Shown here piece by piece: positions 1,558 to 5,446 of a DNA stretch of 34,608 nt. The translations under genes and the position numbers were made by a program. The notes beneath the pieces were generated by a model, which did not search any database, was not told the origin of the DNA, and saw only the letters and a program-made list of their open reading frames with translations. The number at the start of each line of letters is the position of its first letter. Position 1 is the stretch's first letter. Source of the DNA: Candidatus Avelusimicrobium aviculae (lineage in GTDB: Bacteria > Elusimicrobiota > Elusimicrobia > Elusimicrobiales > Elusimicrobiaceae); contig CALUXF010000016.1 of the NCBI GenBank assembly GCA_944324655.1, positions 1 through 34,608 on the forward strand, given 5' to 3'.

Positions 1558-2943
1558 CTAGTTTGCTATTTTGGGAGAAAGGGCTTCCAGGGAGTTTAAC
1601 TCCGCCTCTATATTTTCCAAGTGGTTCCATACCACATTATGCAGTTTTTTTAACCGCATATAATATGCCTTTACATACAATTTTTGGGAAAGGGCCAGCG
1701 GAGTGTTCATAACCGTGTTGGGTTTGTTTTTTTCTTGCTGTTGAAGAAATTCTATTGCCCCTATACGTTGTTTTATATTATTTAAAATATCGGTATAAGC
1801 CGTGTCCCAATGTCTTAATAATTCCAAATGGGCCTGTATTACCTGACGGTTTGCCTGAGCGGAAAGCGGCGCTTTGGAAAATCTTAACCCGGCGCTGCGG
1901 GCTTGTTTCAGTTTTTCTTCTATGGCGCTTCTGCGGACTGTTTCGTTCGGGTTCAGCAGCAGCCATTGGGCGGTGGAAGGGTCCAAATACGTAAGCGCGC
2001 CCAGCACGGCGCCGGATTCTTCTGCCGGCAAAAGGGAAGCCAAATCCAAAAATAAATTGGCTTGTTCTTCACTCCAGGTTTTTCCCTCTTTTAACGGTTC
2101 TATTAACAGCGCTTCTTTATGGCGCAGGTAAGTGAGTAATTCTTTGCCCATAGCCGGGGGGACCCAGCCGTCCATTTTAACCGCGGGTATTTCGTGCAGC
2201 ATATTAATGTATAAAAGGGTTAAATCCGGGCCGGCCAATTCCGCGGTTTTGGCTACATGCCGGCTTAAAGCTAATTTTTGCTGGGTCGTTAAGTTGGTAT
2301 TAAAAATTTTATCAAACACTTGGCTCAAAGAAGAATATTTACCCTGTGAGATCTCTTTTGCGGTTACCCCGCAAGCATAGAGCGGATGCTGCGGATTAAC
2401 CGGGAATTTGGTGGGGCCCATGGAAACGGACTGGCGGCCGGGTGTTTGCCAGGAAAGATGCTTCTGGCCGTTCAAAAAGGCTTCTTGGAAGCGGTTAATG
2501 TGCTGTTCGTTGTCTCTTAAGAATAAGAATTGTTTTTTAGCGGAACGTGCGGGAAAAGATAAGGGAAAAACAAGCCGCTGCGTTTGCTGCGACAGCGGAG
2601 CAATGTTTTGGCTTAATATGTCAAATACGGTTTTTTCGTCCGCTCCTTCCGGGATATATATTCCCAGTTGTTTTAATAAATCCAGTTGGGGTTTAAACTC
2701 TTTATCCTGCAGTATGCCCGGCATGCGGACAAGGGCTCTTCGTACTTGTTGGAAGGCCAGAAGTTGGTTTTCTTTAAGAAAGAATTGTTCCGCTGTTAAC
2801 GCTTTTGTTGAGCCGGCCGTTTCCAGCGCTTTTTGTGCGGCTTGTTTTAAATAACGGCTTTGGGCGAATAAAGAGCCGGACGGCGCTAAAAAACAACCGG
2901 CCAGCAACAAAATAAAAAAATAGTTTTTATCGGCGTGTTTCAT
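1558..2943 (-). CDS. Secreted protein of unknown function, tandem paralog B
   Basis: The 461-residue product has a signal peptide ending near LFAQ (about residue 28). The rest is a Leu/Gln-rich, probably helical protein that parallels its neighbour at 69-1547 along most of its length: an N-terminal block with KENQLLAFQQVRRAL, a central MGPTKFP / HPLYA block, then WSEEQANLFLDL and ALTYLDP. It is the first gene of the pair. A -35 (TTGTTG, 2977-2982) and -10 (TAGCAT, 2953-2958) 18 bp apart lie upstream, directly below a GGCC-rich element. There is no clear Shine-Dalgarno sequence before the ATG. I recognise no family. Confidence 0.8.
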   Translation of the reverse strand: MKHADKNYFFILLLAGCFLAPSGSLFAQSRYLKQAAQKALETAGSTKALTAEQFFLKENQLLAFQQVRRALVRMPGILQDKEFKPQLDLLKQLGIYIPEGADEKTVFDILSQNIAPLSQQTQRLVFPLSFPARSAKKQFLFLRDNEQHINRFQEAFLNGQKHLSWQTPGRQSVSMGPTKFPVNPQHPLYACGVTAKEISQGKYSSLSQVFDKIFNTNLTTQQKLALSRHVAKTAELAGPDLTLLYINMLHEIPAVKMDGWVPPAMGKELLTYLRHKEALLIEPLKEGKTWSEEQANLFLDLASLLPAEESGAVLGALTYLDPSTAQWLLLNPNETVRRSAIEEKLKQARSAGLRFSKAPLSAQANRQVIQAHLELLRHWDTAYTDILNNIKQRIGAIEFLQQQEKNKPNTVMNTPLALSQKLYVKAYYMRLKKLHNVVWNHLENIEAELNSLEALSPKIAN

Positions 2944-2952
2944 ATTCTTTAT

Positions 2953-3018
2953 ATGCTATCAAACAGAATTGTACGCCAACAAGGGTCATAGGGCCTATAT
3001 GGGTTTAGGCCTTTTGGC
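2953..3018 (-). promoter_or_regulatory. Promoter plus GGCC-rich upstream element (copy 1)
   Basis: On the minus strand, TTGTTG at 2977-2982 and TAGCAT at 2953-2958 are 18 bp apart and precede the gene starting at 2943. Immediately upstream (2980-3018) is an element with GCCAAAAGGCCT, ATATAGGCCC and GACCCTTG. Related sequences occur at 18935-18971 and 32545-32579. Confidence 0.45.
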
Positions 3019-3052
3019 GCCGCAACTGTTCCCGGTACTACCGGAAAAACAC

Positions 3053-3082
3053 AAAAAAACCGGGGGCGTTTGCGGCCCCCGG
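3053..3082 (-). terminator. Terminator of the lexA-like gene
   Basis: CCGGGGGC (3060-3067) pairs with GCCCCCGG (3075-3082) around a 7-nt loop. It is followed on the minus strand by a run of seven T (3053-3059). A second GC hairpin (3135-3142 with 3152-3159) lies between it and the stop codon, giving a 3' leader of about 120 nt with no gene in it. Confidence 0.8.
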
Positions 3083-3171
3083 TGAGGTTACGACTAATTG
3101 CCCCAGGGTTTTTTAACCGCTGCGGCGTTTGCAGGCGCGGGGTTTCGGCCTCCCCGCGCGCAGCAGGAAAA

Positions 3172-3780
3172 CTAACAGCTTACGTTTCTTTTGATAATGC
3201 TTCTGACAATGCCTTCTACATGAAAGGTTTGCGGGTCCGCCACAATGGGGGTATAAAACGGGTTTTCGGACTGTAAGATCACGCTGTCCCCGTCTTTGCT
3301 AAAGCGCTTTACCATTACTTCCCCGTTATTTACGCAAACCACCACGTCTTTGTTTTTGGGGGAGTGGTTTATTTCCACAATCAGCCAGTCTTTGGGGGAA
3401 ATGAGATGTTCCATAGAGTCCCCTTTCGCTTCCACCATAAACCCTTTGCAGGCGGGGAAATACACCATGCTGGGGTCCACCGGTACAATGCGGGTGGGGG
3501 TGCCGTCTAAAATGGTTCCGGCGGGGCCGCATTTGGCCATGCCGTACATTTTTAAATAGATGACGTTGCGCTCCGGGTCTTTTAAAATAATATAGTCTCG
3601 CGGGTTGGCCGGGTTGCGTTTTAAATAGCCTTTCTTTTCCAGCTGTTTAATGTGGTGGAAAACCACACTTTTGCCGCATACGTCCAACCGGTCGGCCAGT
3701 TCTTCCATGGTAAGCGGGTCCGAAATATTATTTTTTAAAATTTCCAGCAGTTTGATTTGTTTGGGGTGTAAGGCTTTCAT
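3172..3780 (-). CDS. lexA: LexA-type SOS repressor (S24 peptidase family)
   Basis: The 202-residue protein has the LexA layout. Residues 1-65 form a winged helix-turn-helix. A hinge with an Ala87-Gly88 bond (in CGPAGT) is the expected self-cleavage site. The C-terminal S24 domain has Ser122 in GDSMEH and Lys158 in VMVKRF as the catalytic pair. In the known family, RecA filaments trigger cleavage and derepress DNA-repair genes. The start is supported by GGGAGG 5 nt before the ATG. A strong promoter overlapped by a perfect tandem repeat lies just upstream and suggests autoregulation. It stands alone between terminators. A LexA-like regulator of another regulon is the main alternative. Confidence 0.85.
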   Translation of the reverse strand: MKALHPKQIKLLEILKNNISDPLTMEELADRLDVCGKSVVFHHIKQLEKKGYLKRNPANPRDYIILKDPERNVIYLKMYGMAKCGPAGTILDGTPTRIVPVDPSMVYFPACKGFMVEAKGDSMEHLISPKDWLIVEINHSPKNKDVVVCVNNGEVMVKRFSKDGDSVILQSENPFYTPIVADPQTFHVEGIVRSIIKRNVSC

Positions 3781-3804
3781 AACGCCTCCCGTTTTATACC
3801 TTTT

Positions 3805-3851
3805 ATTTTGTTCTATATTTTGTTCTATAAAATTTTTAGGAAAATTGTCAA
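3805..3851 (-). promoter_or_regulatory. lexA promoter with tandem-repeat operator
   Basis: On the minus strand TTGACA (3846-3851) and TATAGA (3824-3829) are 16 bp apart, a near-consensus sigma-70 promoter. The 12-mer ATTTTGTTCTAT (plus strand) occurs twice back to back at 3805-3816 and 3817-3828, overlapping the -10. This places two GTTC cores 8 nt apart (3810-3813 and 3822-3825), close to the GTTC-N7-GTTC box of alphaproteobacterial LexA. Binding by the adjacent LexA is inferred. Confidence 0.65.
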
Positions 3852-3886
3852 AAATATTTTTGCAGTAGGGGGGGAAGGAGAAATAT

Positions 3887-3916
3887 AAAAACCCCCGCTT
3901 TTAAGACGGGGGTTTT
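3887..3916. terminator. Hairpin terminator after galT
   Basis: AAAAACCCCCG (3887-3897) pairs with CGGGGGTTTT (3907-3916) around a 9-nt loop. T-runs exist on both strands. It lies between the galT end (3941) and the lexA promoter, so it closes the gal operon. Confidence 0.8.
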
Positions 3917-3940
3917 GATGATGGTTTTTTAAGGTTCTTC

Positions 3941-5446
3941 TTACAGTTTCTTTAAAAACCGCTCAAACGCGGCCTGCCCATCGGGCGTGCGTTTATAAAC
4001 GCCGGCGTATTCCAGCACGCGCGCAAACACTTTGCCCACTTCTTTTTGCAGTATTTCCTGCGTGCTCGTTTTGGTAAACGTGTATTTTGCCAGCATTTCT
4101 TGCGCCCAAGGGGCGTGTTTGGCTAAGGCTGGGTCTTTTTGTATGGCTTTTATATCTTTCTTAATAAGAAGCGGCTCTAAATCCGCCAGTTCCTTAGCCA
4201 AACGCGCGGGCAGTACGGCCAGGCCCATTACTTCAATGAGGCCGATATTTTCCTTTTTAATGTGGTGTACTTCCTCGTGCGGGTGGAAAACACCCAGCGG
4301 GAACTCGTCCGTCGTGCGGTTGTTGCGAAGCACGATATCCAGTTCAAACGCTTTGCCGCGGCGGCGGGCAATCGGCGTAACCGTATTATGCGGCGTGCCT
4401 GCGGTTTTGGCTAAAATATCGGCCTTCGGGTCGCTGTAAACGCGCCATTTTTTTAGGATATAGTCCGCCGCTTCAGCCAAGTCTTTTTTGCTGCCTTGCA
4501 GGCGGATGACGCTCATCGGCCATTTGACTATGCCCGCTTTCACGCGCGGGAATTTGGCCAGTTTAAACGTTTTTTCTATGGGGGCTTTTTCCATAGCAAA
4601 TACGTAGCGCCCGCCTTGGAAATGGTCGTGCGTTAAAATGGAGCCGCCCACAATGGGCAAATCCGCGTTGGAGCCTATAAAATAATGGGGGAACACTTCC
4701 ACAAACGCCAGCAAACGCTCAAAGCTTTTTTTAGTCAGCTTCATCGGTTCGTGCGTATCGGAAAGGAAAATGCAGTGCTCGTTATAATACACGTAGGGGG
4801 AGTACTGCAAAAACCAGGGTTTTCCGTCTTGCAGCAAGTCCAGCCCAATTAAACGCAAATTCTGGCGCGCCGGGTGGTTTGTGCGGCCGGCGTAGCCCTC
4901 GTTTTCTTTGCATAACAGGCAGGACGGGTAAGAAGCCGGCGCGGCTTTTAAAGCGGCGGCGATGTCTTTCGGGTCCTTTTCCGGTTTGGACATATTAATC
5001 GTAATGTCCAGCGCGCCGTATGGGGTGCGGGCCTTCCAGTGTTTGTTTTTGGCTACGCGGGCGGTGCGGATATAGTCCAATGCGCGGGCGTCGTGGTAAA
5101 ATTTATCCGTTGCTTTTTTGGGGTTTTGGGCCCAGAGCTCAAAAAATTCGTTTTCCACTTCCGATGGTTTGCGCGCGAACACGCCCATTAATTTGGTGTC
5201 AAACAAATCCCGCTGGGTGACGGTGTCCGGCTCAAAGAGTTTTTGTTTGGCGGCCCAGTCACAAATTTTTGACAGGATTTCACAGGGAAACTCCGGCGTG
5301 GCCCCTTTAAAGCCGGAGGGGGAATAATCGTTCAATTTCAGCAAATCAAGCAATTGGTTGCGGGCCCAAACCTCGTCGGCCGGGGCCAGGAGCTCTTGGT
5401 CTATGGCGTAGGCGATTAGCTGGTCAATTAACAAATAGATGTTCAT
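3941..5446 (-). CDS. galT: UDP-glucose--hexose-1-phosphate uridylyltransferase (type 2 GalT)
   Basis: The 501-residue protein transfers UMP between UDP-glucose and galactose-1-phosphate in the Leloir pathway. Its length and sequence fit the longer Firmicutes-type GalT rather than the roughly 350-residue E. coli type. The active-site block is THDHFQGGR, with His273-x-His275; the C-terminal part has GVFHPHEEVHHIKKENIG. I chose the ATG at 5446 because AGGAGG precedes it; an in-frame start at 5479 would run into galE. It begins 8 nt after the galE stop and is the last gene of galM-galK-galE-galT. A Cys pair (CLLC, 176-179) is present. Confidence 0.9.
   Translation of the reverse strand: MNIYLLIDQLIAYAIDQELLAPADEVWARNQLLDLLKLNDYSPSGFKGATPEFPCEILSKICDWAAKQKLFEPDTVTQRDLFDTKLMGVFARKPSEVENEFFELWAQNPKKATDKFYHDARALDYIRTARVAKNKHWKARTPYGALDITINMSKPEKDPKDIAAALKAAPASYPSCLLCKENEGYAGRTNHPARQNLRLIGLDLLQDGKPWFLQYSPYVYYNEHCIFLSDTHEPMKLTKKSFERLLAFVEVFPHYFIGSNADLPIVGGSILTHDHFQGGRYVFAMEKAPIEKTFKLAKFPRVKAGIVKWPMSVIRLQGSKKDLAEAADYILKKWRVYSDPKADILAKTAGTPHNTVTPIARRRGKAFELDIVLRNNRTTDEFPLGVFHPHEEVHHIKKENIGLIEVMGLAVLPARLAKELADLEPLLIKKDIKAIQKDPALAKHAPWAQEMLAKYTFTKTSTQEILQKEVGKVFARVLEYAGVYKRTPDGQAAFERFLKKL

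What the first reader, a model, noticed from the sequence alone, without database searches (positions are those of the whole stretch)
3805..3851. Likely LexA operator: perfect 12-bp tandem repeat over the lexA -10
ATTTTGTTCTAT is repeated without a gap across the -10 of a near-consensus promoter. The GTTC-N8-GTTC geometry is a direct repeat, unlike the palindromic boxes of E. coli (CTGT-N8-ACAG) and Bacillus (GAAC-N4-GTTC), and one base longer than the alphaproteobacterial GTTC-N7-GTTC. This could be the SOS box of this lineage.
Basis: partly seen in the sequence, partly recalled or inferred. Interest (0 to 1): 0.6.

Follow-up and report, generated by a model that had tools for sequence, protein, structure and literature searches.

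The report
Direct-repeat LexA operator in Elusimicrobiaceae
A short DNA sequence repeated head to tail in front of the DNA-damage repressor gene lexA is kept in nearly identical form across a family of gut bacteria; it is very probably the switch this repressor binds, a new version of a known kind of switch that in this genus seems to control little or nothing besides the repressor itself.

Summary
The repeat is real: ATTTTGTTCTAT twice without a gap at 3805-3828, or TATAGAAC-N4-TATAGAAC on the lexA strand, under a TTGACA -35. It precedes a LexA-type gene (LexA wHTH + S24; Cys-Gly, Ser, Lys invariant in 9 aligned orthologs). GAAC-N8-GAAC lies upstream of lexA in 67 of 68 orthologs with readable upstream DNA (60 in the genus, 7 in two sister genera, 1 in another family); the exception is GAAT-N8-GAAC. 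Over 57 upstream regions the 20-bp box holds 34 bits (1.71 per column; flanks 0.48) and keeps its form while its place relative to the promoter changes: an operator, not promoter sequence.

'SOS box' holds partly. In 66 genus genomes the core pattern hits lexA upstream 59 times and elsewhere 25 times (reversed-pattern control 47): 24 inside reading frames, one 188 bp before rplJ in one genome. In the genus recA follows clpB by 14-21 nt without a box; dinB loci have none. But in the sister-genus genome G066 the one convincing extra site lies 58 bp before recA. So: an autoregulatory LexA operator, direct repeat of period 12; regulon lexA + recA in G066, apparently shrunk to lexA in this genus. 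The lexA 3' UTR also carries a conserved, covarying two-hairpin RNA of unknown role.

The parts
3172..3780 (-). lexA, 202 aa: LexA-type winged helix plus S24 autopeptidase; putative scissile Cys84-Gly85, nucleophile Ser122, Lys158
   Evidence: Pfam LexA_DNA_bind 34.5 bits and Peptidase_S24 75.5 bits, both over cut-off; TIGR00498 98.5 bits, under its cut-off of 110.95; full-length match to solved LexA, E 3e-13, in which Cys-Gly aligns with E. coli Ala-Gly; residues invariant in 9 aligned orthologs
3810..3829 (-). LexA operator (proposed): TATAGAAC-N4-TATAGAAC, direct repeat, period 12
   Evidence: conserved before lexA in 68 of 68 orthologs, 67 with GAAC-N8-GAAC; 34.2 bits over 20 columns in 57 upstream regions
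3818..3829 (-). first copy TATAGAACAAAA; its TATAGA is the presumed -10
3806..3817 (-). second copy TATAGAACAAAA
3846..3851 (-). -35 hexamer TTGACA (presumed)
   Evidence: sequence; best match 6 of 6 at offset -22 from the box
3888..3916 (-). terminator-like hairpin between galT and lexA, so that lexA starts its own transcript
3059..3171 (-). lexA 3' UTR: hairpin(s), conserved unpaired AATTAGTCGTAACCTCA (3098-3083), terminator hairpin 3083-3059

Best explanation
The tandem repeat is the operator of lexA. A LexA dimer reads the two GAAC half-sites as a direct repeat 12 bp apart, lies over the -10 and start region and shuts off lexA. After DNA damage RecA filaments would make LexA cleave itself at Cys84-Gly85 and the gene would be derepressed. 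Shown by comparison: that a LexA-type repressor with a complete self-cleavage set is encoded; that the direct repeat is under strong selection before lexA in a whole family and in one genome of another family; that it keeps its form while the promoter around it changes; that in one sister-genus genome (G066) the same site overlaps a promoter-like -10 of recA. Inferred: that LexA is the protein that binds, that it binds as a dimer, that cleavage needs RecA. In the window's genus recA sits 14-21 nt behind clpB without a box, so there LexA seems to control chiefly or only itself.
For: LexA domains and PDB match; cleavage residues invariant in 9 orthologs. Site before lexA: 59 of 60 genus genomes with exact WAGAAC-N6-TAGAAC, 20-37 bp before the start codon, the 60th (G003) with one change; G066, G067, G126, G129, G130, G135, G137 and G077 too. 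Box 1.71 bits per column against 0.48 in flanks. Three layouts: over the -10 with TTGACA upstream in most genus members; directly upstream of TTGACA in G066, G129, G130 (and near a TTGACT in G077); upstream of TATAAT in G041, G059 and L130. In G066 TTGCGT-N18-TATAAT runs into AGAACAAAAGATAGAAC, 58 bp before recA, gene confirmed as RecA. The 30%-identical LexA-like paralogs on mobile DNA have no such site in the 11 stretches checked.
Against: No binding data. Bare GAAC-N8-GAAC is not enriched genome-wide: 25 hits against 37 for the reversed pattern in the window's genome, 25 non-lexA hits against 47 in 66 genus genomes. The protein scores below the LexA equivalog cut-off. The recA site rests on one genome; G077's recA and the 24 other order members' recA examined have none. 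Species in the set are related, so 68 of 68 is not 68 independent events.
Confidence: 0.9

Rival explanations
1. It is LexA's operator, but the SOS regulon is wider: other targets carry degenerate or half sites that the pattern scans missed.
For: A wider set of sister-genus targets was not tested.
Against: At up to 3 mismatches, hits do not exceed the reversed control in five of six genomes (7 vs 10, 6 vs 15, 4 vs 22, 8 vs 14; G047 9 vs 8; G066 28 vs 20 is the sixth and higher), and 50 of 56 non-lexA hits lie inside reading frames. Other spacings 2-24 between TAGAAC copies give only two further hits in the window's genome, both in reading frames.
Confidence: 0.35
2. The repeat is promoter sequence: a duplicated -10 region or A+T-rich start region, not a protein site.
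For: TATAGA in each copy resembles a -10, and the box overlaps the -10 in most of the genus.
Against: The GAAC parts, which are no promoter element, are the invariant columns; in G066, G129, G130 and G041 the likely -35 or -10 lies outside the box and the box is unchanged; the same box appears at recA in G066.
Confidence: 0.04
3. The box belongs to another repressor that controls lexA.
For: No binding experiment ties it to LexA.
Against: The box occurs before lexA itself and before recA in G066, the two commonest LexA targets (PMC8565304, passages). None of the 5 genus genomes without a full lexA has a promoter-placed core site: 3 have no hit, 2 have one hit each inside a reading frame.
Confidence: 0.05

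Closest known systems
Alphaproteobacterial LexA box GTTC-N7-GTTC
   Same: Direct repeat of the same GTTC/GAAC half-site before lexA and recA
   Different: Period 11 there (GTTC-N7-GTTC as printed in PMC8565304, passages), 12 here in 68 of 68 orthologs (N8)
Balneolaeota LexA motif TTACACATATTTTWTACATA (PMC7739468, passages)
   Same: A direct-repeat LexA motif in a poorly studied phylum; that paper says such motifs arose several times
   Different: Other half-site; that regulon holds recA and translesion polymerases and was shown by gel shift
Gram-positive (Bacillus) LexA box GAAC-N4-GTTC
   Same: GAAC half-site
   Different: Palindromic there, direct repeat here
Geobacter sulfurreducens LexA proteins, autoregulated but not binding the recA promoter (title of Jara et al. 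2003 seen in the reference list of PMC8565304; paper not read)
   Same: LexA that controls itself but not recA
   Different: Palindromic, different motif; two lexA genes
DinR of Klebsiella (PMC10907235, abstract and passages)
   Same: Precedent for an RNA made from the 3' end of a LexA-controlled mRNA
   Different: From dinI, shown by experiment; the lexA 3'-UTR element here is only a prediction

Membership tests
LexA repressor | LexA DNA-binding winged helix plus S24 peptidase domain | tested here: met
   Both Pfam models over cut-off
LexA repressor | Curated equivalog score TIGR00498 of at least 110.95 | tested here: not met
   98.5 bits; orthologs 102.3, 109.8 and 89.0. LexA in build and best hit, below NCBI's naming threshold
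LexA repressor | Self-cleavage set: small residue-Gly bond, Ser, Lys | tested here: met
   Cys84-Gly85, Ser122, Lys158 align with E. coli LexA and are invariant in 9 orthologs; Cys-Gly rather than Ala-Gly, as recalled for UmuD
LexA repressor | Autoregulation through a site in its own promoter | tested here: met
   By conservation only:
LexA repressor | RecA-dependent self-cleavage and specific binding | not testable with these tools
   Needs purified protein
SOS box (regulon member sites) | Same site before recA | tested here: inconclusive
   Met in G066; not met in the 5 genus genomes and 25 order genomes read
SOS box (regulon member sites) | Same site before Y-family polymerases | tested here: not met
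   None in the window's genome to test; 0 of 11 genus loci carry the core
SOS box (regulon member sites) | Same site before uvrA, uvrB, dnaE2, ruvAB | tested here: inconclusive
   Those genes were not looked up; genome-wide pattern scans found no convincing site before any gene but lexA in the window's genome
Alphaproteobacterial box GTTC-N7-GTTC | Seven bases between GTTC copies | tested here: not met
   Eight in 68 of 68 orthologs
Gram-positive box GAAC-N4-GTTC | Inverted repeat | tested here: not met
   Direct repeat; sequence

The most novel reading that the evidence does not exclude
In this genus LexA is a one-promoter regulator whose output is an RNA: the lexA mRNA carries, in most members, a conserved two-hairpin 3' UTR with an unpaired AAUUAGUCGUAACCUCA loop, so that cleavage of LexA after DNA damage would release a 3'-UTR small RNA acting by base-pairing, in place of a protein-coding SOS regulon.
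Probability: 0.1. Interest if true: 0.85.

Novelty: new variant of a known kind. Interest (0 to 1): 0.52.

Why it matters
LexA is known for changing its binding motif between phyla; PMC8565304 (passages) counts 17 reported motifs. None of the listings from my searches for LexA or SOS with Elusimicrobi or for LexA-binding motifs is a study of this phylum; the library is open-access only. The motif here is a direct repeat with the alphaproteobacterial half-site but a period one base longer, in an unrelated phylum, and it survives in a genus in which LexA's grip on recA and on translesion polymerases is not visible. That gives a dated, testable case of regulon loss down to the autoregulator, and a ready probe for gel shifts.

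Tried and rejected
A wide regulon by pattern: GAAC-N8-GAACNNNW in the window's genome gives 25 hits against 37 for the reversed control, 24 of them inside reading frames of 80 aa or more. At up to 3 mismatches of 17 there are 7 hits against 10; of the 6 others 4 lie in reading frames and 2 between genes (L190 between pseudopilin genes, L192 between an L20-like gene and a convergent gene), neither upstream of a same-strand gene nor with GAAC in both halves. Five more genomes: 55 hits, 5 of them lexA; of the 50 others 46 inside reading frames, 4 between genes; three of the four have GAAC in neither half (two of them, L328 and L330, do lie before a same-strand gene), the fourth is recA's in G066.

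Other spacings or phases: TAGAAC-N2..24-TAGAAC gives lexA and two hits inside reading frames. I did not search for palindromic arrangements genome-wide.

Phage hijacking: 89 viral stretches match TATAGAAC-N4-TATAGAAC exactly; 80 were given as loci and none of those encodes a relative of this LexA at E <= 1. Their hosts and reading frames were not worked out; I treat them as chance.

A known RNA family at the 3' UTR: none reaches Rfam's gathering score in 2800-4100; the nine listed matches are weak. A first look for mRNAs complementary to its loop in 142 kb of the window's genome (overlapping loci counted more than once) gave nothing beyond one GAGGTTA before an L20-like gene; not pursued.

Rows dropped: G022 (lexA cut by the contig end, upstream not held) from all ortholog counts; L131, the same kind. 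For the RNA alignment 32 of the 38 loci with a match were used; L088, L089, L090, L100, L120, L125 were left out.

Full report
What is there. The window is a 34,608-base contig of a 1.62-Mb genome. The named relatives of its lexA in genome contigs are mostly titled Elusimicrobium sp., Elusimicrobiaceae, Elusimicrobiales or Elusimicrobia MAGs, many from rumen or faeces by their titles. On the minus strand lies lexA, 3780-3172, behind a galT gene with a terminator-like hairpin between them (3916-3888). The repeat ATTTTGTTCTAT x2 fills 3805-3828. Read along lexA it is TTGACA-N16-TATAGAAC-AAAA-TATAGAAC-AAAA, then 25 bases to the ATG.

The protein. Pfam LexA_DNA_bind and Peptidase_S24 are both over cut-off; the NCBI equivalog lexA is the best model but at 98.5 bits falls short of 110.95. 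It aligns over its length with solved LexA (E 3e-13); there Cys84-Gly85 stands opposite E. coli Ala-Gly, and Ser122 and Lys158 opposite the catalytic pair. All four residues are invariant in nine orthologs down to 50% identity. It is the only S24-family match in the window's genome.

Conservation of the site. LexA orthologs: 60 genus genomes with a full gene, G066, G067 and G077, and G126, G129, G130, G135, G137: 68. G022, cut by the contig end, is left out. The exact pattern WAGAAC-N6-TAGAAC lies 20-37 bp before the start codon in 59 of the 60 genus genomes; G003 has TATAGAAT-AATA-TATAGAAC at the same place. All eight others have GAAC-N8-GAAC upstream; in G135 the second half is GTGGAAC. G077, of another family by the tool's grouping, has CATAGAACATAGATTAGAACA. 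Over 57 upstream regions (window, 43 loci, 13 more) the 20-bp box sums to 34.2 bits, 1.71 per column, against 0.48 in flanking columns. Both GAAC cores and the A after the first are at or near 2 bits; the four bases between copies vary.

Operator, not promoter. In most of the genus the box overlaps the -10 with TTGACA or a relative about 21 bases upstream of the box start. In G066, G129 and G130 TTGACA starts right after the box; in G041, G059 and L130 a TATAAT lies 28-29 bases after the box start. The box is unchanged through these rearrangements.

Regulon. In the window's genome there is no other site at up to 3 mismatches of 24, and nothing convincing at up to 3 of 17. Genus-wide (66 genomes) the exact core gives 84 hits: 59 before lexA and 25 elsewhere, while the reversed control gives 47. 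Of the 25, 24 lie in reading frames and one (G031) lies between genes, 188 bp before rplJ; it is not repeated in other genomes. In the five genus genomes read at recA, recA starts 14-21 nt after the upstream gene, which in the window's genome is ClpB by its best model (partial sequence), and there is no box. Y-family polymerase genes were found in 11 of 41 genus genomes, not in the window's, and none of the 11 loci holds the core.

The recA site. Of the five further genomes scanned at up to 3 mismatches, G066 (one contig of 1,643,562 bases) had 28 hits (control 20). One is lexA's and one is AATAGAACAAAAGATAGAACG in the 112-nt gap between a ClpB gene and recA, 58 bp before the recA start (RecA). 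TATAAT runs straight into it behind TTGCGT-N18, the layout of lexA in the window's genus. It is the only one of G066's non-lexA hits that is between genes. I take this as the strongest single sign that the motif is an SOS box.

Reading. LexA of Elusimicrobiaceae most likely binds a direct repeat of GAAC half-sites 12 bp apart, represses its own gene in all members that have it, and recA in at least one sister-genus species. In the window's genus the recA link seems lost with the closing-up of clpB and recA. Five of 66 genus genomes show no full lexA at all (G005, G008, G019, G042, G055; two of them 95% and 98% complete), so it is dispensable there, or missing from the assemblies.

A second element. 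The lexA 3' UTR of the genus carries a hairpin, a conserved unpaired AATTAGTCGTAACCTCA and a terminator hairpin. The string AGTYGTAACCTCA was found 112 times (37 distinct contexts) in 1.99 Mb of fetched DNA, every time behind a LexA C-terminus, though that DNA is heavily weighted to lexA loci. A match was found in 38 of 43 loci, one of them (L100) doubtful. In the alignment of 32, 8 of 10 predicted pairs include sequences with both sides changed, and six single sequences fold better than shuffles, z -2.9 to -7.4. It is absent or decayed in five loci and not seen behind lexA in the sister genera or in G077 (by eye; several stretches end soon after the gene). No Rfam family reaches its threshold. 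It may be only an unusually well-kept terminator region, a cis element of lexA, or a 3'-UTR small RNA, for which Klebsiella DinR is a precedent (PMC10907235, abstract and passages).

Limits. Everything is sequence comparison. The relatives are not independent. The reversed-pattern control is the tool's own. Reading frames were called by length, not by annotation. uvrA, uvrB, dnaE2 and ruvAB were not looked up one by one.

Noticed in passing
window 3059-3171, minus strand: Conserved two-hairpin RNA in the lexA 3' UTR with an invariant unpaired GUAACCU core and compensatory stem changes; no Rfam match at threshold.
   Followed up: partly
L293-L298, L397-L401 (G008, G055, G031, G048, G045, G040, G060, G018, G011, G003): A second, about 30%-identical LexA-like S24 protein of 210 aa; where neighbours were read it lies beside a RhuM-family gene or divergent from a DUF5681 gene, so probably on mobile DNA. 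It occurs in two genomes, G008 and G055, that lack the chromosomal lexA.
   Followed up: partly
L132-L136, L145, L146 (order genus g10): A LexA-like S24 gene divergent from recA with a conserved intergenic stretch (GTCAATATCTCCTTAATACTTGACAGAT) that is not the GAAC repeat: possibly another SOS system in the order.
   Followed up: no
L287 1201-1398 (G077): lexA is followed within 2 nt by a Vsr mismatch endonuclease gene (Pfam Vsr, 84.9 bits).
   Followed up: partly
G005, G008, G019, G042, G055: Five of 66 genus genomes show no full chromosomal lexA.
   Followed up: no
G041, G059, L130 lexA upstream: TATAAT lies 6-9 bases before the lexA ATG, which suggests a leaderless lexA mRNA.
   Followed up: no
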